NCBI GenBank assembly: GCA_963669155.1
Contig: OZ022589.1
Coordinates: 7,585,272 to 7,649,271 of the forward strand
DNA length: 64,000 nt
Direction: 5' to 3'
From: Arbacia lixula
Taxonomy: Eukaryota; Echinodermata; Echinoidea; Arbacioida; Arbaciidae
A program made the translations under genes and the position numbers. This document shows positions 15,537 through 61,550 of the stretch, piece by piece. The notes beneath the pieces are model-generated. The model was not told the DNA's origin and ran no database searches. It saw only the letters and a program-made list of their open reading frames with translations. Numbering within the stretch: position 1 is the stretch's first letter; each line of letters opens with the position of its first letter.

Positions 15537-16110
15537 ACTTGTCGCATTTACCGGATGCAATGACCTTGTGTGCTACGTCATATCGTACACATGTGGTCAC
15601 TGAAAATTATAATTTGTACCTTCTGGACACTTGTGGCTTGACCGATACAATGACCTCATGAAAAATATATCATGACTTACTCTAGTCAATACAAAGGATA
15701 TCGTGTATTCAGGGATATCACTGAAATCATTGTCGCATTTTCCGATGCAATGACCTTGTGAGCTGTGTCGTATCGTACACATGTGGTCACTGAAAATTAT
15801 AATTTGTACCTTCTGGAAGCTTGTGGCTTGACCGATGCAATGACCTCATGAAAAATATATCATGACTTATTCTAGTCAATACAAAGGATGTCGTGTATTC
15901 AGGGATATCACTGAAATCATTGTCGCATTTTCCGATGCAATGACCTTGTGAACTGTGTCGTATCGTACACATGAGGTCACAACAAGTTATAATGTGTACC
16001 TTCTGGAAACTTGTGGCTTGACCGATGCAATGACTTCATGAAATAGATATCATGACTTATTCTAGTCAATACAAAATATATAATCTATTCAGGGATATCA
16101 TTGCATATGT
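15537..16110. repeat. Tandem repeat, 190-bp unit, three copies
   Basis: Three tandem units with starts 190 bp apart, each containing TTGTCGCATTTTCCGATGCA, CGTATCGTACACATG and GACCTCATGAAAAATATATC. The second and third units differ at few positions while the outer ends are more diverged, which suggests expansion from the middle. Each unit gives a near-identical 61-residue minus-strand open frame, which is a by-product of the repeat. Confidence 0.93.
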
Positions 16111-16479: not shown

Positions 16480-18181
16480 TGAACGGATTGAGTTAGATGT
16501 GAACACATTGGAACATGAGGACCTATCCTAACTCACTGGCGCAAACCAAAGAAGAAAACGCTGAATGTGAACAGATCAAAAATTTCCCCCTTTCCTCAAT
16601 TTCTAGCACGTAAATACCACACAATTGCTGACTAAGTTAGATGTAAACACATCAAAAATCTCTCCCATTCCCTAACATCCTGGTACATTCAGTCAAGAAA
16701 ACGCTGATTGGAACTCTCTTTCCTGCCCTCAGATCTTGGTACATTCAGTCTAGAAAACGCTGACTAAGTTAGATGTGAACACATTGGAACTCTCTTCCCT
16801 TCCCTCACATCTTGGTACGTTCAGTCAAGAAAACGCTGACTAAGTTAGATGTGAACACATCAGAAATCTATCCCCTTCCCTTACATCCTGGTACATTCAG
16901 TCAAGAAAATGCTGACTAAGTTAGATGTGAGCACATCAGAAATCTCTCCCCTTCCCTTACATCCTGGTACATTCAGTCAAGAAAACGCTGATTTAGTTAG
17001 ATGTGAACACATTGGAACTCTCTTCCCTTCCCTCACATCCTGGTACATTCAGTCAAGAAAACGCTGATTTAGTAAGATGTGAACACATCAGAAATCTATC
17101 CCCTTCCCTTACGTCCTGGTACATTCAGTCAAGAAAATGGTGACTAAGTTAGATGTGAGCACATCAGAAATCTCTCCCCTTCCCTTACATCCTGGTACAT
17201 TCAATCAAGAAAACGCTGATTTAGTTAGATGTGAACACATCAGAAATCTCTCCCCTTCCCTTACATCCTGGTACATTCAGTCAAGAAAATGTTGACTAAA
17301 TTAGATGTGAGCACATCAGAAATCTCTCCCCTTCCCTCACATCCTGGTACATTCAGTCAAGAAAACGCTGATTTAGTAAGATGTGAACACATCAGAAATC
17401 TATCCCCTTCCCTCACATCTTGGTACATTCAGTCAAGAAAACGCTGACTTAGTTAGATGTGAACACATTGGGACTCTCTGCCCTTCCCTTACATCCTGGT
17501 CCATTCAGTCAAGAAAATGCTGATTTAGTTAGATGTGAACACATTGAAACTCTCTGCCCTTCCCTTACATCATGGTCCATTCAGTCAAGAAAACGCTGAT
17601 TTAGTTAGATGTGAACACATTGGAACTCTCTTCTCTTCCCTCACATCTTGGCACATTCAGTCAAGAAAACGCTGACTAAGTTAGATGTGAACACATCAGA
17701 AATCTCTCCCCTTCCCTCACATCTTGGTACATTCAGTCAAGAAAACGCTGATTAAGTTAGATGTGAACACATTGAAACTCCCTTCCCTTCCCTTACATCT
17801 TGGTACATTCAGTCAAGAAAATGCTGATTTAGTTAGATGTGAACACATTGGAACTCTCTCCCCTTCTCTAACATCCTGGTGCATTCAGTCAAGAAAACGC
17901 TGACTAAGTTAGATGTGAACACATTGGAAATCTCTCCCATTCCCTAACATCCTGGAGGGTGTTTCAACAAGCTATTCGTAAGTTACGAACGACTTTACGA
18001 ATGACTGGTGATCCCTTCTTGTGCTAAATGCGATACCATACTTTGCTCATTGAGAATCTGATTTAGCAGAAGAAGGTATCACATCAGAAATCTCTCCCCT
18101 TCCCTTACATCCTGGTACATTCAGTCAAGAAAACGCTGATTTAGTTAGATGTGAACACATCTGAGATCTGTCCCCTTCCGT
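16480..18181. repeat. Minisatellite, ~75-bp unit, about 20 copies, interrupted by a MITE
   Basis: Each unit contains CATTCAGTCAAGAAAACGCT, then GTTAGATGTGAACACAT and a CCCCTTCCCTTACATCCTGG-type segment. Two variants are mixed along the array: one with TTGGAACTCTCTTCC and one with CAGAAATCTCTCCCC. The left end (16480-16640) is diverged. At 17957-18081 a partial TIR element interrupts the array and one unit follows it. The array stops about 30 bp from the donor of the exon at 18209-18310. Confidence 0.95.
17957..18081. mobile_element. GGGTGTTTCACCAAG-end MITE, partial, inside the minisatellite
   Basis: The left end GGGTGTTTCAACAAGCTATT followed by GTTACGAACGACTTTACG and GACTGGTGATCCCTTCTTG matches the left ends of elements at 24823, 38046 and 39076. 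The right half is short and fades into the repeat unit at about 18080. Confidence 0.8.
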
Positions 18182-46335: not shown

Positions 46336-47532
46336 AGGAAGAATGGAACGCAGTATTCCTGCCTGGTTCATAAATGTGCTACATTATCATTTTACCAATA
46401 CTAATGATATTTGGTCAAATATGTATAATGTAAACAGGGAAATGAAAAGATTTGACCTTGAACTTTGACCTAGCAGAACCAAAAGATAATCATTAAAATG
46501 TTCTGTCAATTACTTCTGTAGCAAGTTATATATTACGGTTTTACATTCACGTACATTTGACCAACAGTACATCACCTAAAACGTAATGTTATAATCAAAT
46601 GATTGTTATAGTAAGTTAGGTGAAGTTTGGAGGCTATCAGAGCATCAGTGACGAGTCAGAACGATGGTCACTCTGAAACGAGATATTTCACATGTAAATA
46701 ATAATAGCTTTGCTCTTTTCTCGAGAAAAACAATTCATGAAGCTACAACTGTGAGATTTGATATGTGTTAGCAATAGGGTATACAACTGATCAATGTTGA
46801 TTTTGACTACTTTTGTACGAGGGCTACACCACTTTTGGGACATCTTTTCGGGACCAAGTACCACCAAGGGGGTGGGATGGCTTTTTCTCAGCAGCAACGC
46901 TGTACAGTGTGAAGCCATGTATTCCCATGAATCGAATCATCCTCCCTACATCGTCTTCTAAGACCTCCTTCAACTATGCCATCGACCTTTTTTTTCTCCT
47001 TGCCGCATCCAAGTTCAGACCAACTGTAGCAGCGTAACCAAACCACACAACAAAATAAACACGTGGTGCTTGAATTTCATAACAGGGCTGGTTTTGAAAC
47101 AACACCACTTGATACGTTCGGAGATCACACTCACTGGATGAGAGCTCTGGTCCTCCATGCCTTCCCATGGTGCCTTTCTCCATTCTAGAAACGACGTCCG
47201 CTCCCCCGTCCATTCAAACCGCTTGGTGCCAATAGTCTCTTTCTCGTTCACAAGGAAAGGGATTGCTCAATCAGTGGCACAATTAATGGGTACTTGACCC
47301 ATTTCTCCATCTTTTTTTTTAAAACATATTTTACAGATGATGTATTGGGTGACAGCTTGTCATGTGAGGGAGCTTTTTGTGACAAGTACATGTCAATTAA
47401 CTCTTTGGGCAGCAGACTACTGCTGCTGTATGGGGTTGCTGTGGGTAGTGCTTGTGCAATGAATGCAACAATTTCGCTTCAAGAGTTAAGGGATTATATG
47501 ACTACTAATCAAACAAGGCATTAGCAATATTG
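46336..47532. other. SMARCD intron, no gene established
   Basis: Intronic sequence. A minus-strand open frame at about 47015-47251 (KRFEWTGERTSFLEWRKAPW) has protein-like composition but no match I recognise, and a stop precedes it. Confidence 0.45.
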
Positions 47533-48485
47533 TGTCTCGCCCACTTGCGAAAATAACCAGAAATATCGCGATCTCTGTTGCTACGCAAAAGAAAACTTTA
47601 AGTTAACTTTAACGTATGACCTCAAATGACCTTTGACCTTATCCTGTGACCTCCAACGGTACCATAACATGAAGGTACCCCCAGTGCATCTATGACCCAA
47701 GTTAGGTTGTAATCCAAGAAACCTAAGTGAAGTTATTTGTCAAAAGAGAGTCTTGCAGGTAAACTTTAACGTATGACCTCAAATGACCTTTGACCTTATC
47801 CTGTGACCTCCAACAGCACCATAACATGTAGGTACCCCCAGTGCATCTATGACCCAAGTTAGGTTGTAATCCAAGCAACCCATGTGAAGTTATTTGTCAA
47901 AAGAGTCTTGCAGGTAAACTTTAACGTATGACCTCAAATGACCTTTGACCTTATCCTGTGACCTCCAACGCCACCATAACATGACGGTACCCCCAGTGCA
48001 TCTATGACCCAAGTTAGGTTGTAATCCAAGCAACCCATGTGAAGTTATTTGTCAAAAGAGAGTCTTGCAGGTAAACTTTAACGTATGACCTCAAATGACC
48101 TTTGACCTTATCCTGTGACCTCCAACAGCACCATAACATGAAGGTACCCCCAGTGCATCTATGACCCAAGTTAGGCTGTAATCCAAGCAACCTATGTGAA
48201 GTATTTGTCAAAAGAGAGTCTTGCAGGTAAACTTTAACGTATGACCTCAAATGACCTTTGACCTTATCCTGTGACCTCCAACGCCACCATAACATGAAGG
48301 TACCCCCAGTGCATCTATGACCCAAGTTAGGTTGTAATCCAAGCAACCCATGTGAAGTTATTTGTCAAAAGAGAGTCTTGCAGGTAAACTTTAACATTTG
48401 TGACGGACGACGGACGACGGACGGACGGACGGACGGACGCCATTTGGATCCCTTAGTCTCGCCTTCACCTCCGGTGGGCGAGACA
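47533..48485. mobile_element. GTCTCGCCCAC-end element with five tandem nuclear-receptor-site units, copy 1
   Basis: The left terminus TGTCTCGCCCACTTGC is the inverse of the right terminus GGTGGGCGAGACA. Between them are five units of 155-157 bp, each with AACTTTAACGTATGACC, CCCCCAGTGCATCTATGACC and TTAGGTTGTAATCCAAG, then a truncated unit and a GGAC/GACGGAC microsatellite (48402-48438). The perfect DR1 motif TGACCTTTGACCT is at 47627, 47784, 47939, 48096 and 48252. Homology with copy 2 also covers about 23 bp left of the terminus (ACAAGGCATTAGCAATATTG), so the true left boundary could be near 47512. No transposase is present. Confidence 0.9.
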
Positions 48486-49839
48486 ATAAACTTGGGAACA
48501 TCTATCTGTCCAGGCCCCCCCTCCCCCTCCCCCTCTCCCCCCCCCCCCCCCCTATTACAAAGAGTCAGCGGCTATCTTTAGCAGCTTTGCGATTGATTGC
48601 AAAGTTTGCTCCCTTTTGCAAACTCACTGTATCTCAAAACTTCAAAATGTTATATAGTCCAAGCCTATGACTACATGTATTTTGCAATAAATCGTACATT
48701 ACAATACACTGTAGATCCACACAAGCCATGATTAATACTAACTGCAAGTTATCGATATCGATCATGGATCCTATTTGGTATGGAGTTACGATTGATATCA
48801 ATCAAAGCTCTTTGTGATACAGACCCCAGGAGTACTGAAAGCCTGGGTCCTGTCTCATAAAGACTTACACTTGATCGCAACTTGACTCAGGATTGAAATC
48901 AATTGTAACTCTGTACGTTCGATATAGGGGAGTGGATTTACAATCGATTCACATCAATCGTAACTCTTCATATGACAGGGCCCTATAGTTTGGAAATAAC
49001 CCCTACCCTATGCTGTAGTCCTTTCCTAAATTTACATTATGCTGTGTTTTGTTTGAGTCAGTCTTTATTCATGGACCACCAAAACATTTAAAAACTTGGC
49101 ATTGGGGAAGGTTTAAAGCTTAGCATAGTGAGTGCTCTTACACAATGCAACTTGGCTTGGCTCCGGTATACTTAAATGATAACATGACATCTCAGTAGTC
49201 ATAGCTTCAAAAACTTTGTCAGGAAAAGTGAAAAGCCATTTTTCTTTATGTTGACAACAACCTGTTCTACAGTGACATTATTAGTTACATCCTGCTTGTT
49301 CACCGAATACGGGATATATCTATGTTCTGGCTCCATATTCCATAAGACAGATTAAAGAATGTAAGCAATAGCAATCCCGTACGCAAGTCACGTGATTATG
49401 CATTAATTTTACCAATTTCTACAGCCATGCACTTTTTTGTGCAGCACTGTGCCGCATTTCCCTGTTTGTGTATAAACTCTATGCAAGCTACATGTAGGTT
49501 GCTCTGGGCCGATTGATCCAGCGCGCGGTGTACGCGCAAGCTAGCTGCGTGTATGTGCTTGAGCGTGCTGTTTCATGGAATACAGGCTCATATTCAGTGG
49601 TTGAAATCGCCACTGCACGTGTGCACAATGATGAAAACACCATAATATATTAAAACAAAAACAACAACAAAACATAAACAGGTAATACGGGCGCAAATTA
49701 CCCCTTTGATATTTTCGACCACGTAAATGAGGTAAATACAGATTTGTCTCAAAGACAAATTGACCAATCAGATTACAGAATTCATGAAAAAAATGGCCCA
49801 CTAAGAGATAATAGTCTACATTAATTGCACCGGTCAGTG
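48486..49839. other. SMARCD intron, no gene seen
   Basis: Intronic sequence with a poly-C run at about 48538-48552 and a degenerate TIR repeat at 48843-48985. Nothing else is recognisable. Confidence 0.5.
48843..48985. mobile_element. GGGCCCTGT-end MITE, diverged subfamily
   Basis: It begins GGGTCCTGTCTCATAAAGAC and ends CTTCATATGACAGGGCCC, an imperfect inverse. The interior has TTACACTTGATCGCAACTTG and inverse ATCAATCGTAACTC motifs. It is related in its termini to the elements at 58352 and 62397. Confidence 0.65.
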
Positions 49840-50118
49840 CATTGGTCAGTTTACTGGTCAGCAGGGCTCTGTGCTAGCCTCAATGCACCATTGCAGCGCA
49901 GAGAGCTGTGATGTGCGCTACTGCGGTCTTGGGTCTCTGGATTCTACGATCCACTTAGTTTAGGACAACCTGTCCAAAAGTTAACTCAAAATCTAGCAAT
50001 CAATACAATTCCACTTTCCAGACAGTTTCTAGCTGTCATATATTGTGAGGGAAGTTCATAAGACAGTATTTTCTTCCATTTTTGTGGTATAGACACAAAT
50101 TTACTTATTTTTAACATG
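49840..50118. mobile_element. AAAGTCAGGGTGTCCC family element, truncated
   Basis: It matches 57560-57820 in order: AGAGAGCTGTGATGTG, ATTCCACTTTCCAG, GTGAGGGAAGTTCATAAGAC and CTTCCATTTTTGTGGTATAG. The TTAA terminus present in other copies is missing. Confidence 0.75.
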
Positions 50119-51085
50119 GAAATGGGCTCAATCAACGTTATTTTGAACTAAGCACACATTTTGAAACGCAAAGTCCAAGGAATAATCTGATGCCACAGCG
50201 ATGATGGCAGTATTAACTTTGCATTGCTTGCTCGCTCGCTCTCTTCTTGGCTATCACTACCACACAGGATAGGCAACACGGTTTTGGCTAAATCGGGATC
50301 TAGGGCACGGGGGTTGGGGTGGGCAGTGACGTCATACGCACCCACATGTTTGATGAAGTCATTGCTGGTTATCGCGTTGTTTCATCTACCCGGCTGCCCA
50401 CAAATATTTGGCTTGGTTTGTTCTATAATTGGGCTAATTGATCTATTTTGGGTATGTAGGTCTTCATTTCTATCCTCAGCTTTATTAATCATACTTGCAC
50501 TAGAGAGAGAGAGTAAGTTGGCGCAAGGTACCTTCCAGTCTATTCTCAGAGTCTCTGAGTGTCTTGAAGAAACCTAACAACTTTCAATAATATTGCACAA
50601 GCCAAAGATTAAGAACAGACAGAAAAAGATGAGAAGAACCTAATGGTGATAACTACTATAAGTATTTCAAGATTGATTGATTGATTAGAAAGAGTGGGTA
50701 AGGGGGAAACAAATGTGGAATGCTCTGATATCTATAGCTAGTGAACTGTTTGTATAAAGACAAGTAGTCTCCAATGCAGGTCTAGTTACATTATGTTCTC
50801 AAAAATTCACAAATCAATAACACCTCTTCCCAAGCAACGTTTCAACATTTTCAACTTCTATACAAACTAACTTGCTCATATGCTTTTGACAACCGATTAC
50901 AAGTATGTCGAGGGCAATGGGCAAGGATATTTCCCGCAGAACTACTGTATCAAGGAAGTCCCTGAAACGGCGTGGATGGCAGCAACTCAAACATGAAAGA
51001 GAGCCCATGATGCAAAACAGCAGGATCTGTGCCACACCTCTGTCCCTAATAGACAATAGTTTTTTTCTTCACATCACTAAAATAA
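50119..51085. other. SMARCD intron, no gene seen
   Basis: Intronic sequence without recognisable features. Confidence 0.5.
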
Positions 51086-51347
51086 TACCCTGTCTTAGCA
51101 GACGGTTCTCCAGAGAATCTCCGGAGAAGAAGCTCAGAATAAAAATTCCTTGTTTGGGCCAACATTTTGGACACTGTCTTAACAGCCACTGCTCGAGCTC
51201 GAGCCACTGCAAGAGTTCTCTGGAGGTTCTCCAGAGGTTCTCCGGAAGTTCTCCTGTGTCGAGCGTCTTAACAGACAGTGAGTAATTTGTTCACTAGAGA
51301 TTCTCCGAAGGCTACCCCGCAAATTTTTCTCTGTTAAGATGGGGTAT
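51086..51347. mobile_element. ATACCCTGTCTTAGCAGA-end element
   Basis: The left ATACCCTGTCTTAGCAGA and right CTGTTAAGATGGGGTAT are approximate inverses flanked by TA. The interior repeats GTTCTCCAGAG, TTCTCCGGA and TGTCTTAACAG motifs several times on both strands. It is a non-coding element of about 262 bp, and no second copy is visible in this window. Confidence 0.65.
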
Positions 51348-52569
<1,222 letters not shown>

Positions 52570-52692
52570 ATCTTCCAAGAGTCTTCCTTCCACCCTGAGC
52601 TCCCAGGAGGGCACGCTGGAATCATCCTCATCTGCATCTGGCTTTCCGGGGTAGTAAGTGTTGGAGATAAACACTCGCAGCTTCCGCTTTTG
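52570..52692 (-). CDS. SMARCD1: SMARCD (BAF60) internal exon, first seen in window
   Basis: This is a 41-codon exon of the SWI/SNF (BAF/PBAF) subunit SMARCD/BAF60, a nuclear protein that links the remodelling complex to transcription factors. The translation begins [18 protein letters not shown] and ends [13 protein letters not shown]. Both stretches match the segment just N-terminal of the SWIB domain in animal SMARCD proteins as I remember them. The acceptor reads TTTGCAG and the donor is a full-consensus GTAAGT after the GAT codon. The exon is phase 0 at both ends, and its reading frame continues into the exon at 51605-51718. The acidic linker (DADEDDSS) is slightly different from the vertebrate one. 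The paralogue (D1, D2 or D3) cannot be assigned; most invertebrates have one gene. The preceding exon was not found up to the right edge. Confidence 0.95.
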
Positions 52693-53333
52693 CTGCAAAG
52701 ACAATGAGAAAACAGCGCACTGAAAGTTTAAAGATATCTTGAATGATCTATTCTTCCCTCATGCATTCTTGAGCATTCAAGTGGTATATTTTTGCATATT
52801 AGCTTCTGCTTTTCATTGAGGAGCACCTTGAAGATGTACTCACAGCAGAGAACTCCTCGGCATCTGTCTGAATTACATAGAATAATGTTACATGAACTAG
52901 ATGCACAGGGTACATGTGTTGTTTTGTTGTGGTATACATGAAAAGATAAACAGAAATGTCTATCAATTGAATGATAGCAGTGGGGAAAAGAATACAATTT
53001 AGAAATTACAATGCAAAGGAGAGCAAGCCCCTGTAGATAATGAAGGGCCCCTGTGACCATTATATAGTTCTCTCATTGGCTATAATACACAGGGTGTGTG
53101 TGTTTCATAATATCACTCTTGAAGAGTAGTAGCCCCACAAATAATATTTGAATCTTTTATCAGATAGATATGGAGAAATAAAAATATATTTCCCTGAAGC
53201 ATTTTAGCCTATCACATCAGTTCTCAAAGACATTCATTAATTTTGAATATTAATATATTCCATACCATGACAAAGGGAAACTTTTCTGACAAGGCAATTC
53301 CCCTCACAGACAGATCCACAGTACATGTATGTA
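52693..53333. other. SMARCD intron upstream of the first seen exon
   Basis: Intronic sequence. No SMARCD exon for the segment preceding QKRKLRVF (family motif similar to LDQTIMRKR) was found here or up to position 64000. Confidence 0.5.
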
Positions 53334-53412
53334 TTAACCCAGTCAGTACTATTGTTACTGATGTGTGTAGTAAGTCAATGGGGTTCTCAAGGCTTGGTAA
53401 TAGGAGGGTTAA
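53334..53412. mobile_element. Short TTAACCC-type foldback MITE, copy 3
   Basis: Bounded by TTAA, with TTAACCCAGTCAGTACTA at the left and GGTAATAGGAGGGTTAA at the right. Length 79 bp, as in the 24176 copy. Confidence 0.72.
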
Positions 53413-53579
53413 AATACTAGAAAATACCATCGTCAAAATTTCTCTGAATACATCCGAACCCACCTGGACCTCTCCGTACACTGCTGAATATTGTGCCGTC
53501 ACACAGGGTAGCATGATCCATCCAGTAAATACCAAGATGGAGCACGCTATTCTTTAAAACTACTACGAACAACAAGTCA

Positions 53580-54015
53580 GGCCTCGTTTATCAACTTTTC
53601 AGAAATTTAAACGCGTTTCCAAAGGCCTTTACGAACGCGTTTGCAAACGCGTTTAAAAAAAACAGTGCGTTTAGCAACTCAATCACCCAAGTCGAAAACC
53701 GGTCTTGTCACTGCGCAGCTCTACTGTGCCGCTACGCGTGCACTGTAGTACAATACGGTGCGATCGATGTGTTTACGGAAACACGCAGTTTAAAGTCTTT
53801 TCTAAAGACAGCTTTGTGTTTATCTTGCTTCTTTGAACGCGTTTCTGGTTTAAACGCATTTAGAATCGCACAAATTTGCGTGTTTCAAAACAGCTTTCCG
53901 AACCCCATAATCAAAACACCTTTGCGTTTATCAACTCCCTGAAACGCGTTTAAAAAAATGTAAACGCGTTTGGAAACCTTAATTCTACCAAAAAAAGAGT
54001 TGATAAACACGCCCT
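53580..54015. mobile_element. TIR element rich in AACGCGTT motifs, copy 2
   Basis: It has the same length and order as 5242-5677: a GGCCTCGTTTATCAACTTTT left end and an AGAGTTGATAAACACGCCC right end, with GTCACTGCGCAGCTCTACTG inside. AAACGCGTTT or AACGCGTTT occurs at least six times. Confidence 0.87.
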
Positions 54016-57000
54016 CACACAATTTACTTAATTTGTTGTTCATTTCTTTCTAGTTGCTTGCTTAGTGCAATTATTATGCTTACATATTTTAGTGTAACTT
54101 TTGAATATTTTTAACGTACTCCAATCACACATTTTTATGTAAACTGGCTTAGAAATAATCTTTGTAATATTTATATATCATGTATGTGTTGTATCATTTA
54201 TCTAAGCTTTCAAACAGTACACATAGGAAATTCAGCCTTTAGCTGCTATACATGTTTATTTTCATCACTACAACTTAAATTGAATACATCAATATGATCT
54301 AATAAAATAGTTCTATCTAGATAGGCAGAGGCGTGCAGATAGAAGGATGTACACTGTACATATTCTACCCCTTTCCAATATCAAACACAAAGTCTTTTCA
54401 GAGTGACACAGATAGCTGAGTTTACTCCACTTTAGCTGAGCGGTTTGATGATTAATTTGAAGAGATAGATCATACCAGCCAGATCTGGGTCATTGGTGCT
54501 CCTGTCAGCTCCCTGACAAACACTCATTTTTCCAGCCCCAAATACGCCCCAGCCACCAAACAAAGTGATAAAAAAACAAACACCGCCATCATGTGTGTGC
54601 GTTATTGTGTACCAGTTATTGAGGATAAACAAATCCCCGTTTCTTTTATACTTTGTACGCGAGACTGATTTTTTTTTTTCTTTTCTGAGATATGAATTGT
54701 TCTCCGCTTTTGAATTTTTGAATGTCTTTGAGGTTTTCTACTTTCCGGTTATGTTGTTAACGAGGCGCCCTTTTCTGTTTCCTAGCTTAGCCCAGTTCAC
54801 ATACGCCACCTATCCGCAAAATAAGCGCAACATTTGTGGCAATTTTGCTGATGCAATACTGATAGCTGCGTAGGGTATACGATATTTGCTTCCTCCTTTT
54901 TTTCGCTTATTTTGTGGCTATTTTGCGGATCGAAACCTAGTAATTATACTAAAATACTGTGGTAAGTGAATTTTATAAACTGCGTGCGTAAAAAAGCTGT
55001 AAATGTAGCGCATTGCGCTCTGGCATGTGGTTCCCTAATCGCATCGGGTGAACTATCTCTTTAATGTTTCAGTATTTTTATACAACTTCTAATGCTTGCA
55101 TAACATTTCTATTAAGCTCTGTGTGAGACGACCTTTACCTTCATCATACCACGAGACAAGACCGACATTGAAAGAGGGGAAGAACGATGTCTGTCAAACC
55201 CAGAGTGACGAGTATCTAGATTACACAACATATAAATATTTATACCACCAAAGGCAGAGCAGAGAGGGAGCACGGCCAGCCAGGATGTCAGAAAAAAAAG
55301 ACACGCAATTTTAAAAAAGAGAAAAGAAAAGAGAGAAAAGGAGCGTGACATGATGATGAAGTGATGCCATTGATGTGAAGACACAATAGCTTCACAAACA
55401 TAACCCAGATATCATTGACGTCTTGTCATAACACAATCAATTACTCCATTGTCAGCTGTCAGTCTATTGTACAAATCTGCTCTGCCTTCTACTAAGCCCT
55501 GTCTAAACCCTCTTCCAGCCTCAATAGGGCTGTCTTCGTGGCACCAAATCTGCAAATTAGCGTGCTTTTTCTGATTTTTTTTTTTTTGGGGGGGGGGATA
55601 GAAAAAAGTATGCTTTTTTTTGCTACTGAAGATCTGATACAGACAAACTAGTGTGCTATTTGCCTGTTTTACAGATGTGATGTTGACTTTAGACTAATTT
55701 GCCTGGTGGAATAGAAGGATATGCTGAAGGTACCTCATACATGTGTAATGGACCATTATTTACAGTACTTTATGCAAATGTTATGCATATCTTCCAAACA
55801 ACAGTCTGCTCACAAAGACTACTACCTAGACCCAAGTCCTAATGGAATGCTCAGCATCGAGTCTGATTGGTTGATTGATGAGGGACATGCATGCATGTAG
55901 CTTTGTCATCATAATGCCTAACCATTCAACTGATCCCAAATTCTGATTTGTAGGCTTCTTTTGACAGTAAATTCCATTCTGTTAAGCACAGAAGTACAGA
56001 ATTTATCCTACTTCAATTACAAATCTATTAAAGATGTTTTAAGTGCTTCCCTCCTTTTTACGGTTTTTCCCAGAGGTAAAAAAAAACCCCAAAAAACAAA
56101 ACGGGTGAACACCAGCAAAAATGGTACAGTAACCTACAATAGTTTATACTGAAGAAATGTGAAAGTGTCAAAGTGCACTAATTTCTGGAAATTAAACTCA
56201 ATGGCAACAAACAGGGTACTTTGCATATTACAACATCTGAGATACTATTTCATACTAATAAAAATTATTGTTAAGCAAACATCACACACTGCAATGAGCC
56301 CATTAGCACTTGGTGATGGGACTTCGAGTAATCACGACATAAACTACTGCATGTTTTGCCTTTTTTTCTCCTTTTCCTTTTCCCTTTGGTTGTTTTGTAT
56401 GCTGTAAGGAATTTGCTCCATCCTCATGAATTATGATTTTTTTTATGTACAGTATAACGCTTTTGCAAATGCTACTAAAGTGTGAATGATCCCTTTTGAT
56501 AAGAAAATCACATGGGGAAAAAACCTAAAGTAAGAACGCGCCACAACACTTCGGGTTTAAAAAAAAAGTGGGTCTAAAAAAAGTGGATCACAAAGAAGGA
56601 GTGACTGAGTGAGGGTTCAGCAAACGCGAGGTCAGAGACTTTCCATCTCTCTTCCATCACGGAGAGAAACAGGAGAAAAAGAAGAAGAGAAGAATAATAT
56701 AGGACAGGACAGGCACAAACCAGTACCCTAAAAAAAATGCATGGTTGTCCCTGGCATGAATATTAACAAACAATGGCTAAAATGTACTGCGAATCCTTCT
56801 GGGACGTTGCTGTTCAGAATTCACCCCCAGGGCCTGAAACGAGTGAAGAACGAGGAAAGAAACGCCAAACAAAACCCTTAAGTCGTTGTGATTCTAAGCC
56901 TAGGATGCTGACAACAGTACTAATTGTAATTACAAGTGTTGCCATGGAAAATGGAAGAGAAAGAGAGAGAAAGAGAGAGGGAGAGAGGGTGCGTGAGAGA

Positions 57001-57366
57001 GAAAAATGAGATGACAAATCGTAAAGGACAATAACTATGAAAAGTAGAACAGGGAGAAAACACTAACATAAACTTTGCCCCAAGCAGTATTTTCTTTTCA
57101 CTATTTTACCTCGCTTTTAGTATATTTATCACTTGTCAAATCTCCATTCTGTTAAAACTGTATCAACAGCCATAGAAGCATTAAATAGTATCGTTGGCTC
57201 CGCGCCGTCTTGTGCCTAGTGTGGATTTCTCTGGACGTCAGCTTTTCTTCTGTGTTTGGTTATGCTCTTTATTTTACAGGTGACTTTTCTTCCTGCTTTC
57301 TTCATACCTTCTCACCGTTCATTCCACTATTATTCCCTTTGTTCTCTGTGTCTCTTACTGAAAACC
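54016..57366. other. SMARCD intron, no gene seen
   Basis: Intronic sequence. A weak inverse pair, ATCCGCAAAATAAGCG (about 54812) and CGCTTATTTTGTGGC with TTTTGCGGAT (about 54904-54929), may be the remains of another foldback element. Short GA-rich tracts lie at 55315-55345 and 56950-57005. Confidence 0.5.
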
Positions 57367-57842
57367 TTTAAAGTCAGGGTAGCCCTTTCATAAAAAAAAC
57401 TCATGAAACTCAGCATGGATTAAAAGTGTACCCCAATGATGTATAAATATCAGTCATATCTTCAGAAACCTTTTCAAGAAAATAGAAAAAACTCTCCTTG
57501 TTTATATTTGACACCCCTTGTTTCATTCCAACCATAGCCTGTTTTCACATACTGTATTACCCCAGTCAGCGGTGCAATGCTCGCCTTCAACGTACCGCTC
57601 TGGTGTGGAGAGCCGTGATGTGTACTATTGCTGTCTCTGGTATTGAGGCTATATACAGGAACCTCAAAAGGCGACCCGTCCAAAACTCAACTCATCATCT
57701 AAATCAAATATCATTCCACTTAAAGCCAGTTTGTAATTCTAATACTGTGAGGGGAAGTTATTATACAGTATGTTATTCCATTTTCCTTGGTATTTACACA
57801 AATCAATTTTGTTGGTAAGCAAAGGGGGGATAGTACCTTTAA
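57367..57842. mobile_element. TTAA-bounded AAAGTCAGGG family element, longest copy
   Basis: TTAA stands at about 57369 and 57838. The left end reads AAAGTCAGGGTAGCCCTTTC. The right end, inverted, reads AAAGGTACTATCCCCCCTTTGC, a degenerate inverse. The right half matches 33420-33692 and 49840-50118. Length about 475 bp, non-coding. Confidence 0.75.
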
Positions 57843-58351
57843 GTTCTTTCCGTTCTGAACCACAAGTGGGGCATCTTCTATTTTTGGGATTCTGCTGAAA
57901 GAGAGAACAATCCCCATTGGCTCATTCAGGCATTCTTTGAACACAGACGGCATCATAAAACTCATGTCATACACCTTGACTTTTATCACTTCTTTCGCCC
58001 TCAGGTTTGGGTGTACTGAAGTTCATCTAGAAAGTAACTTTCAGGCAATTTTACAGCTTGCAGAAAAGAGTCAAATTGGTTCAAACATGTAGAATCCTCT
58101 AGCCTGGAGCTATTAATGTAGTCTATGATAGCAATGTCTGAAATGAACAAAACAACACAAACATATATACAAACTGTATGTATTCTTTAAAAAATTCATT
58201 TAAATATGATGCAGGAAAAAAGGAGAAAAAATGTAAAATTGCATCTCATTTGATCAAAGGGTTAGGCCCCTGGATATAGAGATATCTGTGAAAAATCAGG
58301 GCTCGACACTAGCAGTTGCCTATCACACGTGGATACCCAAGTCAAACTTCT
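57843..58351. other. Intron with an unexplained minus-strand open frame
   Basis: A minus-strand open frame ends upstream at a stop near 58022 and contains KVKVYDMSFMMPSVFKECLN and PLVVQNGKNLK. A possible acceptor (AACTTCAG) and a possible donor (AAG then GTACTA) bracket it, but the donor lies at the repeat boundary. I do not recognise the protein and do not call a gene. Confidence 0.3.
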
Positions 58352-58499
58352 GGGTCCTATTGCATAAAACTTGCCATTAATGTTAACTTTGCTACTAATG
58401 GCAACTTCTATGGAAACCTTTAATTCAAACCAATCAAATTCAAGATTTCCACAGAAATTACAATTGGTAGCAAAGTCAAGTTTTATGCAACAGGGCCCC
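58352..58499. mobile_element. GGGCCCTGTTGCATAAAACT-end MITE, complete
   Basis: The left GGGTCCTATTGCATAAAACT and right AGTTTTATGCAACAGGGCCC are inverse, 148 bp in all. It contains TTCTATGGAAACC, as do the other copies. Confidence 0.85.
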
Positions 58500-59072
58500 G
58501 AAGACATACTAACTGATAAGCAGGGTTGGGAATAATGAAAGCTGTGCGTGTAATGAAAAAGTCTTTAATATGTTTAAAAGATAAGAATTTAATTGCATTT
58601 CCTCACACCAAAACGATCCCCTCTCCTTCATTTTCTCTCTCTCAAAATACCAGTCATTGTTGGTCTCCCCCCTTTCCTCCCACACTGGTTTTTCCTCTTT
58701 TGTAGCTTTCTGCTCCAGTATCGGAGAAATTGGCTCTTCCACGTAGACGGGGTTTGATCCCAACCGGCAAATCACTCAAGCTCAGGTACATGAATTACAT
58801 AATCAATACACCATCCCCTTAAGAATGGAAACATATTATAGAGCAGCACACCATTTGGCACAGGGGGAGCAACGTATATCCAAATCACACGATCTACTAT
58901 TGATGTGAACGTACAGTGCATTAAATATCTTAGTACCAACCATTGCTGGTTACACATCAATTACAACACAATTTATTGCCTATGGGACTGACAGGGTAAA
59001 ACAAATGTATTGTGCTTAGTAATGCATATCATTCTAAGCACTCAATGAAAAAACAAGGCATTAGCAATATTG
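58500..59072. other. SMARCD intron, no gene seen
   Basis: Intronic sequence. The minus-strand open frame at 58509-58775 has no family match and no good splice context. Confidence 0.5.
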
Positions 59073-60250
59073 TGTCTCGCCCACTTGCCTAAATCTACAT
59101 CAGTAATGCTCACACATGCTCACACAATTCTGTGCACAAGTTAGGAAGCCTTCACCTAGAGTCTTGCAAGTAAACTTTAACGTATGACCTCAAATGACCT
59201 TTGACCTTATCATGTGACCTCTTACAGCATAATAACATGCAGGTGCCCCCAGTGCATCCATCATCCAAGTTTGATTGCCATTGTAGCAACATGTGATGAG
59301 TTATGTGTGATAAGAGAGTCTTGCAAGTAAACTTTAACGTATGACCTCAAATGACCTTTGACCTTATCCTGTGACCTCCAACGGTACCATAACATGAAGG
59401 TACCCCCAGTGCATCTATGACCCAAGTTAGGTTGTAATCCAAGCAACCTATGAAGTTATTTGTCAAAAGAGAGTCTTGCAGGTAAACTTTAACGTATGAC
59501 CTCAAATGACCTTTGACCTTATCCTGTGACCTCCAACAGCACCATAACATGTAGGTACCCCCAGTGCATCTATGACCCAAGTTAGGTTGTAATCCAAGCA
59601 ACCCATGTGAAGTTATTTGTCAAAAGAGAGTCTTGCAGGTAAACTTTAACGTATGACCTCAAATGACCTTTGACCTTATCCTGTGACCTCCAACGCCACC
59701 ATAACATGAAGGTACCCCCAGTGCATCTATGACCCAAGTTAGGTTGGAATCCAAGCAACCCATGTGAAGTTATTTGTCAAAAGAGAGTCTTGCAGGTAAA
59801 CTTTAACATATGACCTCAAATGACCTTTGACCTTATCCTGTGACCTCCAACAGCACCATAACATGAAGGTACCCCCAGTGCATCTATGACCCAAGTTAGG
59901 TTGTAATCCAAGCAACTTATGTGAAATTATTTGTCAAAAGAGAGTCTTGCAGGTAAACTTTAACGTATGACCTCAAATGACCTTTGACCTTATCCTGTGA
60001 CCTCCAACACCACCATAACATGAAGGTACCCCCAGTGCATCTATGACCCAAGTTAGGTTGTAATCCAAGCACCCCATGTGAAGTTATGGATCATAAGAGA
60101 GTCTTGCAGGTAAACTTTAACATTTGTGACGGACGACGGACGACGGACGACGGACGGACGACGGACGGACGACGGACGGACGACGGACGGACGACGGACG
60201 GATGCCATTTGGATCCCTTAGTCTCGCCTTCACCTCCGGTGGGCGAGACA
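59073..60250. mobile_element. GTCTCGCCCAC-end element with six tandem nuclear-receptor-site units, copy 2
   Basis: It has the same termini as 47533-48485 (TGTCTCGCCCACTTGC left, GTGGGCGAGACA right), in the same orientation. There are six units; the first is more diverged. DR1 motifs TGACCTTTGACCT are at 59195, 59352, 59507, 59664, 59821 and 59978. The terminal GGAC/GACGGAC microsatellite (60127-60202) is longer than in copy 1. The stretch after it (CCATTTGGATCCCTTAGTCT, GCCTTCACCTCCGG) is identical between the copies. Confidence 0.92.
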
Positions 60251-61550
60251 AAAAGTAGAGAGCTTGAAATCATGTACATTCAAACGATAGCCCTTTCACT
60301 ACTATGGAACTGTGTTGGAATTCAGGGCAGTTTGCAAGACATGGTATTAAGGGGGTTAAATGTGCTGGATGTGTTTATTGCACTGTAAAATAAAGAAAAA
60401 AAGCAAGTATCATTCTAGAAGACCAGGGCCACATTGCATATAGGTTTTCATTTATTGTAACTAAAAAATTAAAATGTTATTGCTTTCAGCATGGTAATCA
60501 ACTGCAGGCACTCAAGCACTGATTGGACGATTATGGCCCATCATCATATCATAATAATTATAATAAATATTATTATCTTTGGTTGTGGAGTTTGATAGTT
60601 TTACTACAAAAATTGCTAGATCAAATTCCATTATCGCTGCCACACTCTTTTCATCAGGAAGATATCATGCATAAAACATGCTCTTTGTTTGATATCAAGT
60701 TTTCTTGACAAATTTGCACGAACCTGACCCAAATTCCGGTGATAAAACCTGATAGACAGCAGTAAACACCTCCTCCAATCACCTCTTCCCTCTGAATGAT
60801 TTCCCAAAATGCAGCACAAAAATAACATTGACTTTGGAGCCAATGGAGCCTAAAAATAAGGTTTTTATGCCACCATCAAAAGAGCATTAAATTAATCCGT
60901 TTCTCGAAAAAGAAGACATCTGAGGACAATTGGCAGGGTCGTTGAGCTCTAGTAATGATTGCTGATTGTTCGCCAAGTGTAACCTTGGGATCATAATACC
61001 ACAAAAGAATTCCTCGGCTGGTTACGAGCAGTACATTGCGTGCAGCGGCTTTTATGTATTTGAATCGTATGACCTGGAAATTATTCTTAATCCCGCCCCA
61101 TGCTGTTATGGGGACAGCGACAACATTAGATTACGACCTACTTGGCACGCCAGTCGGCTTCTGTGTTACTGTGCGGTCACAGGAAAATTTGAGAAAATTA
61201 TGAAAAATTCTCAAAAACAATCTTCAACTCACATCATTTATACATACACATAATTTCATCTTTAATCCGGTATTGTATGTCATATGTAGGTCTTGCCTGT
61301 CTTTGTGTACCAATGCAATTCAATTAATAATCATTCTACATGAATTGTGAGCTGGCAACAGCTATTCATGCATTTCTCATGATTTTAAGGGTAGGACCCA
61401 GAAGTAGGTACGCAACAGTCAGCTAACAGATGAAGTGTCACAAATACTGAACTTGTTAAAGTACTCAATAATGTTTGTGGCCGAGATAAGTAATACATTT
61501 GTCAATGTGTTTAAACAAGTCAGTGCCAAAAGTGTTTGGCATGTGTTATA
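60251..61550. other. SMARCD intron, no gene seen
   Basis: Intronic sequence. The + strand open frame at 60966-61253 has no match I recognise. Nothing else was identified. Confidence 0.5.

What the first reader, a model, noticed from the sequence alone, without database searches (positions are those of the whole stretch)
47533..60250. Transposon-borne tandem arrays of perfect DR1 (and DR4) nuclear receptor sites inside SMARCD introns
Seen: all eleven units of the two elements (five at 47.6-48.3 kb, six at 59.2-60.0 kb) hold four TGACCT half-sites in the same strand, separated by 4, 1 and 7 bases. The middle pair is TGACCTTTGACCT, whose inverse AGGTCAAAGGTCA is the textbook DR1 bound by HNF4, RXR and COUP-TF type receptors. 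The first pair is a DR4. Units diverge elsewhere, yet the DR1 core is the same in all eleven. Inference: the element carries and multiplies a receptor-binding array, which may act as an enhancer, a silencer or a receptor sink, or the motif may serve the element's own replication or integration.
Basis: partly seen in the sequence, partly recalled or inferred. Interest (0 to 1): 0.78.

Follow-up and report, generated by a model that had tools for sequence, protein, structure and literature searches.

The report
Jumping genes carrying hormone-receptor-like site arrays
Two copies of a rolling-circle type jumping gene in this animal genome carry tandem copies of a sequence that nuclear hormone receptors are known to bind, and the jumping genes seem to preserve that sequence as they spread; this may reflect use of host receptors, but no binding has been shown.

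Summary
In detail: 11 units in two elements (47513-48486, 59053-60254), each with four TGACCT half-sites spaced 4, 1 and 7; the DR1 occurs 23,903 times genome-wide against 48 for the reversed pattern. On the minus strand both elements have HINE anatomy (non-autonomous Helentron): 12-bp subTIRs, inner inverted repeat, GTCC-type microsatellite, ~157-bp central repeats. 1,983 places match the 3' end. A second family (B, 2,292 ends) with other termini and mostly 140-174-bp units keeps AGTTCA-T-TGACCT-T-TGACCT-C-TGACCT. Half-sites differ from consensus 6.3 (A) and 2.3 (B) times less often than the rest. Variants private to one unit hit half-sites at the normal rate, while variants shared by several elements are rarer there, so constraint appears to act on the propagating lineage, not on single copies. 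Of six half-site variants counted genome-wide, the two fitting RGKTCA are the commonest. This fits a box kept for the element's own spread, plausibly bound by host nuclear receptors; binding is not shown. Nothing supports an enhancer of SMARCD. Against a receptor reading: a neighbouring non-receptor block is as conserved, units are not independent, and the shared-variant contrast in A weakened with more data.

The parts
47513..48486 (-). Element 1, A-family HINE, about 974 bp, five units, inside SMARCD
   Evidence: Same 3' border as 27 other A copies; its 5' border reads GAGACAATAA, as in 1 of those 27; 3' end matched at 1,983 places with up to 3 mismatches
59053..60254 (-). Element 2, A-family HINE, about 1,202 bp, six units, upstream of the SMARCD exon at 52.65 kb
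48474..48485 (-). 5' subTIR of element 1 (TGTCTCGCCCAC on the minus strand)
60239..60250 (-). 5' subTIR of element 2
47533..47544 (-). 3' subTIR of element 1, followed on the minus strand by the 3' tail CAATATTGCTAATGCCTTGT
59073..59084 (-). 3' subTIR of element 2
48402..48439 (-). GTCC/GTCG-type microsatellite of element 1
   Evidence: Tandem Repeats Finder
60128..60202 (-). GTCC/GTCG-type microsatellite of element 2
   Evidence: Tandem Repeats Finder
47605..48386 (+). Central array of element 1: five units of 155-157 bp, each TGACCT-4-TGACCT-1-TGACCT-7-TGACCT
59173..60112 (+). Central array of element 2: six units of 155-157 bp, same half-site pattern; the first unit is the diverged one
47627..47639 (+). 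Example DR1 core TGACCTTTGACCT (others start at 47784, 47939, 48096, 48252, 59195, 59352, 59507, 59664, 59821, 59978)

Best explanation
Both features are non-autonomous Helentron-type rolling-circle elements (HINEs) inserted in or beside introns of SMARCD. Their central tandem repeats carry a box of RGKTCA half-sites that is kept while the element lineage spreads and decays neutrally in individual copies. Shown: the anatomy, the copy number, fewer differences in half-sites in two families with different ends, a contrast between private and shared variants (moderate statistics), and an excess of half-site variants that still fit RGKTCA. Inferred: the box is a cis signal for the element's own propagation, most plausibly bound by host nuclear receptors that use DR1 sites (RXR, HNF4, COUP-TF type; recalled) in germline or embryo, opening chromatin or otherwise favouring transposition. 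My split: HINE identity 0.93; constraint on the box in propagating lineages 0.65; receptor binding as the reason 0.35.
For: HINE anatomy as described in PMC7492417 and PMC4067079. 1,983 A ends and 2,292 B ends, 0 in the reversed controls. DR1 23,903 against 48; 94 of the first 100 listed, all on contig 1, lie in clusters. A family, 185 distinct units from 50 elements: half-sites 35/4431, spacers 48/2217, rest 1105/22353; 13 diverged units of the smaller set: 7/312, 28/156, 371/1566. B family, 68 units: half-sites 74/1086, spacers 25/133, non-core 1296/8367 (gaps set aside), and the slowest 20-bp window of 156 is AAGTTCATTGACCTTTGACC, an IR1-plus-DR1 layout. A: singleton variants 15 in 24 half-site columns, 75 in 121 other columns; columns with variants in at least 3 elements 4/24 against 55/121, p=0.011. 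B singleton:shared 13:13 against 78:201, p=0.025; A and B pooled by Mantel-Haenszel, odds ratio 2.29, p=0.009. Second DR1 half-site, 6 of 18 single changes counted genome-wide: the two that fit RGKTCA 2172 and 1493, four that do not 870, 714, 529, 193; before the counts 529 and 714 were run it was noted that both should fall below 1493. 54 zf-C4 matches, exon by exon.
Against: A non-receptor block next to the box (unit positions 141-157 and 1-8) is as conserved: the lowest 13-bp window of A lies there, 8 events against 14 for DR1. The diverged A units represent about two lineages, so rates overstate independent events. The A contrast for variants in at least 2 elements was 3/24 against 57/121 (p=0.0014) with 30 elements but 8/24 against 67/121 (p=0.072) with 50, and the A singleton-versus-shared table alone is not significant (p=0.11 and 0.13). 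In 20 of 68 B units the first half-site falls in an alignment gap, i.e. these units hold two half-sites rather than three; 1 of 6 B copies chosen by the 5' end (L204) has no DR1. Variant counts are copies, not events, and some TGACCC copies lie in an unrelated array. No binding or chromatin data.
Confidence: 0.6

Rival explanations
1. The half-site box is conserved only because of how tandem units are copied: conversion and slippage homogenise inner units around a stable segment, and the sequence has no binding partner.
For: A neighbouring block without half-sites is equally conserved, and one diverged lineage shows a sharp change at unit position 40; arrays share order between the two window elements.
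Against: Spacers inside the box differ far more than half-sites in diverged units (28/156 against 7/312; B 25/133 against 74/1086); the box recurs in a second family with other ends and mostly different repeat sequence; of six variants counted, those that fit RGKTCA are commonest.
Confidence: 0.27
2. The box is a recognition or replication signal for Helentron machinery (Rep/helicase, RPA) or a recombination signal, and its likeness to receptor sites is a coincidence.
For: Constraint seems to act on propagating lineages; 43 Helitron_like_N matches, many with open frames of about 3,300 aa, so intact autonomous elements seem to exist.
Against: The signals suspected to be needed for Helentron transposition are the terminal subTIRs and stem-loop (PMC4067079, passages), not central repeats; the variant counts follow the receptor half-site consensus.
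Confidence: 0.15
3. The arrays act as an enhancer, silencer or receptor sink for SMARCD or the genome at large.
For: 23,903 perfect DR1 sites, 94 of the first 100 listed in clusters, could titrate receptors.
Against: Variants private to one unit hit half-sites at the normal rate, so single copies look unconstrained; no chromatin data.
Confidence: 0.05

Closest known systems
Cg_HINE elements of the Pacific oyster (PMC7492417; outline, passages, sections 7 and 9 seen)
   Same: 5' subTIR of 11-12 bp, complementary inner IR, GTCC-like microsatellite in several elements, central tandem repeats, 3' subTIR with palindrome, T-rich insertion sites without target duplication; some repeats share two conserved segments
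   Different: Another animal, sequences not compared; no receptor-site content is mentioned in the parts I saw, and the motif letters there (figures) were not seen
DINE-1 and HINE elements, with sea-urchin elements cited as DINE-1-like (PMC4067079, passages; the cited Tsp paper is not held)
   Same: subTIRs, IR, microsatellite or tandem repeats, 3' stem-loop, TT preference
   Different: Families not compared by sequence; no half-site box in the passages seen
Bivalve BIV160/Cg170 satellites and pearl-family repeats (CvA, DTC84) (PMC5139131, passages)
   Same: Repeats linked to such elements, with two conserved motifs held over divergent monomers
   Different: Motif letters not seen; homology to the present units not tested
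Nuclear receptor DR1 and IR1 response elements (recalled)
   Same: AGGTCA direct repeat with spacer 1; B units also AGTTCANTGACCT
   Different: Located in transposon repeats; binding untested

Membership tests
HINE (non-autonomous Helentron) | Identical 11-15-bp subterminal inverted repeats | tested here: met
   TGTCTCGCCCAC/GTGGGCGAGACA perfect in both elements
HINE (non-autonomous Helentron) | Inner inverted repeat complementary to the 5' subTIR | tested here: met
   GTCTCGCC...GGCGAGAC hairpin, -11.4 kcal/mol in ViennaRNA
HINE (non-autonomous Helentron) | Microsatellite and central tandem repeats | tested here: met
HINE (non-autonomous Helentron) | Palindrome after the 3' subTIR | tested here: inconclusive
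   Only a weak hairpin, -1.3 kcal/mol, in the 3' subTIR plus tail
HINE (non-autonomous Helentron) | Fixed ends and T-rich insertion site | tested here: met
   27 of 27 listed copies (all chosen for a perfect 3' end) start ACAAGGCATT and 26 of 27 end GAGACAAAAA on the plus strand
HINE (non-autonomous Helentron) | No target-site duplication | tested here: inconclusive
   None seen by eye in the flanks printed; no empty site was looked up
HINE (non-autonomous Helentron) | No coding capacity | tested here: met
   No stop-to-stop frame above 116 aa in either element in the list of frames of 90 aa or more
HINE (non-autonomous Helentron) | Autonomous Helentron partner with the same ends | tested here: inconclusive
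   43 Helitron_like_N matches; 4 of 43 loci inspected over about 3.5 kb, no A or B subTIR
Nuclear receptor response element | AGGTCA half-sites in direct repeat with spacer 1 | tested here: met
   11 of 11 window units; 267 of 299 sampled A units
Nuclear receptor response element | Half-sites more conserved than surroundings | tested here: met
   but a neighbouring block is equally conserved in A
Nuclear receptor response element | Bound by a receptor, affects transcription | not testable with these tools
   No binding, chromatin or expression data; 54 zf-C4 matches exist, subtypes not assigned

The most novel reading that the evidence does not exclude
Helentron-type elements have adopted host nuclear-receptor sites: the RGKTCA box in their central repeats recruits receptors so that the elements land in or keep open chromatin in germline or embryo, and in passing they have seeded most of the roughly 24,000 perfect DR1 sites of this genome.
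Probability: 0.28. Interest if true: 0.82.

Novelty: new variant of a known kind. Interest (0 to 1): 0.52.

Why it matters
Why satellite-like repeats inside HINEs keep short conserved motifs while the rest diverges is an open question in bivalves (PMC5139131, passages). Here the motif has a concrete candidate meaning that can be tested by binding assays, and it would mean that one transposon class supplies most consensus DR1 sites of a genome.

Tried and rejected
Host-gene enhancer: set aside as main reading because variants private to one unit are not depleted in half-sites. Heptamer slippage (TTTGACC)n alone: in A the first and fourth half-sites stand at spacings 4 and 7 and are as conserved as the DR1 pair. 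Rfam: no match in the window at the gathering threshold. A 108-bp non-core DNA query found nothing; the tool says it skips very common words. A screen of these 122 loci flagged 22 places, none HINE-like to my eye; the loci show runs of 2-9 heptamers. Literature: the listings showed no title or abstract start that links Helitron or Helentron repeats with receptor sites; most subscription papers are not held. The first rate table was spoiled by 4 truncated units and replaced.

Homology between families outside the box is weak: of 8 cross-family pairs, 4 reached 15 or fewer of 1,000 mononucleotide shuffles and 4 did not; the pair within B did not either (125 of 1,000).
Full report
Observation. 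Eleven copies of TGACCTTTGACCT lie in the window, none expected by shuffling. Each belongs to a unit of 155-157 bp with four TGACCT at spacings 4, 1 and 7. Ten units are near identical (0-11 differences) and the arrays of the two elements have the same order; only the first unit of element 2 is diverged, by 27-30 differences. In that unit the first 39 bases equal the majority sequence.

What carries it. On the minus strand each element reads: T-rich 5' end, subTIR TGTCTCGCCCAC, inner repeat GGCGAGAC, GTCC/GTCG microsatellite, tandem repeats, subTIR GTGGGCGAGACA, tail CAATATTGCTAATGCCTTGT. This is the layout given for HINEs in PMC7492417 (sections 7 and 9) and PMC4067079 (passages). Of 27 further copies listed, all chosen for a perfect 3' end, 27 share the 3' border beyond the chosen letters and 26 the 5' border. 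The 3' palindrome is weak, and no autonomous partner with these ends was found: 43 Helitron_like_N matches exist, 4 were inspected over about 3.5 kb.

Genome. The window lies in contig 14 of an unnamed assembly of 607 Mb. That this is an echinoderm, perhaps a bat star, is my guess from recall of genome size and repeat content; it was not tested. The DR1 occurs 23,903 times against 48 for the reversed pattern; among the first 100 listed, all on contig 1, 94 lie in clusters of two or more and 6 are isolated. The A 3' end matches at 1,983 places with up to 3 mismatches, reversed control 0. Of 20 copies chosen by a perfect 3' end, from the 100 listed, 20 carry at least one unit; one has a single unit. 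A second family, B, with subTIR ATGCCTCCGCC, matches at 2,292 places by its 5' end with up to 1 mismatch. Its units, mostly 140-174 bp with shorter ones at the array start, carry AGTTCA-T-TGACCT-T-TGACCT-C-TGACCT. Of 6 B copies chosen by that end, 5 have DR1s (5-7 each, any spacer base) and 1 (L204) has none. Outside the box, A, B and a third single-unit element in L020 are only weakly alike, chiefly in TGTACCAAGTTTGAT...AATTG.

Rates. From 60 loci and the window, nhmmer with a model of the non-core part only gave 313 hits; 303 were long enough, 4 were dropped because their upstream part is not homologous, leaving 299 units of 50 elements (one per locus, two in the window), 185 distinct. Twenty of the loci were first chosen by the DR1 itself, forty by the 3' end. 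Differences from the consensus: half-sites 35/4431 (0.8%), spacers 48/2217 (2.2%), rest 1105/22353 (4.9%). DR1 is intact in 267 of 299 and all four half-sites in 258. In the smaller set the 13 most diverged units gave 7/312, 28/156 and 371/1566; these represent about two lineages. In B, 68 of 69 units gave half-sites 74/1086, spacers 25/133, upstream AGTTCA 25/408 and non-core 1296/8367, gaps set aside; the slowest of 156 windows of 20 bp is AAGTTCATTGACCTTTGACC. In 20 of 68 B units the first half-site falls in an alignment gap: they hold two half-sites instead of three. The eight B loci of the first set were chosen by the DR1, which favours intact sites; the six later ones were not.

Against a receptor-only reading, the A block at unit positions 141-157 and 1-8 is as conserved as the box (lowest 13-bp window 8 events, DR1 14, mean 63.9).

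Level of constraint. In A, variants seen in one unit only number 15 in 24 half-site columns and 75 in 121 other columns. Columns with variants in at least three elements number 4 of 24 and 55 of 121 (p=0.011), in at least two 8 of 24 and 67 of 121 (p=0.072); the singleton-versus-shared table gives p=0.13. With the first 30 elements the at-least-two contrast had been 3 of 24 and 57 of 121, p=0.0014, and the table p=0.11, so that contrast weakened as data grew; the threshold of three was added with the larger set. In B the table is 13:13 against 78:201, p=0.025. Pooled by Mantel-Haenszel: odds ratio 2.29, p=0.009. Copies thus seem to decay evenly, while variants that spread tend to avoid half-sites.

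Kind of change. Receptor half-sites tolerate RGKTCA (recalled consensus). Of 18 possible single changes in the second half-site of the DR1, six were counted genome-wide. The two that fit: TGACCC 2172 and TGAACT 1493. Four that do not: TGATCT 870, TGACTT 714, TAACCT 529 and TGGCCT 193. Reversed-pattern controls in the same order: 16, 80, 23, 154, 26, 4. The transversion TGAACT exceeds the transition TGATCT at the same base. That TAACCT and TGACTT should fall below 1493 was noted before they were run. These are copies, not events, and some TGACCC copies lie in an unrelated array.

Conclusion. Identity as HINE is firm. Constraint on the box is likely. Host receptors as the reason are plausible and untested; the genome has zf-C4 receptor domains (54 matches counted exon by exon, subtypes not assigned). 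No evidence favours a role at SMARCD.

Noticed in passing
window 15539-16100: Three 190-bp tandem repeats, not similar to the HINE units by eye, with two half-site-like stretches per unit (GCAATGACCTTGTG and CAATGACCTCATG; one of the six reads TGACTT).
   Followed up: partly
window 16707-17955: Tandem array of about 16 copies of a 76-bp unit a little downstream of the previous array.
   Followed up: no
L209 1-1201 (minus strand): Array with steps of about 112-126 bp that looks like a repeated short exon with a TGACC-rich intron ending in TGACCTTTGACCCAG; not a HINE by its look.
   Followed up: partly
L009 around 2308: An isolated DR1 followed by TTCAG and what reads like an EGF-like exon, so some isolated DR1s may simply be branch-point and 3' splice-site sequence.
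   Followed up: no
G000, one search list: 16 of 43 Helitron_like_N matches lie in open frames of exactly 3,278 aa, which suggests a recent burst of an autonomous rolling-circle element.
   Followed up: no
L061-L182: Short runs of the heptamer TTTGACC (2-9 copies) in many prokaryote contigs, among them cyanobacteria and Prevotella.
   Followed up: partly
PMC7161275, primer table passage: A primer for a sea cucumber transcript reads AATGACCTTTGACCTCCACC, so similar repeats may lie in echinoderm transcripts.
   Followed up: no
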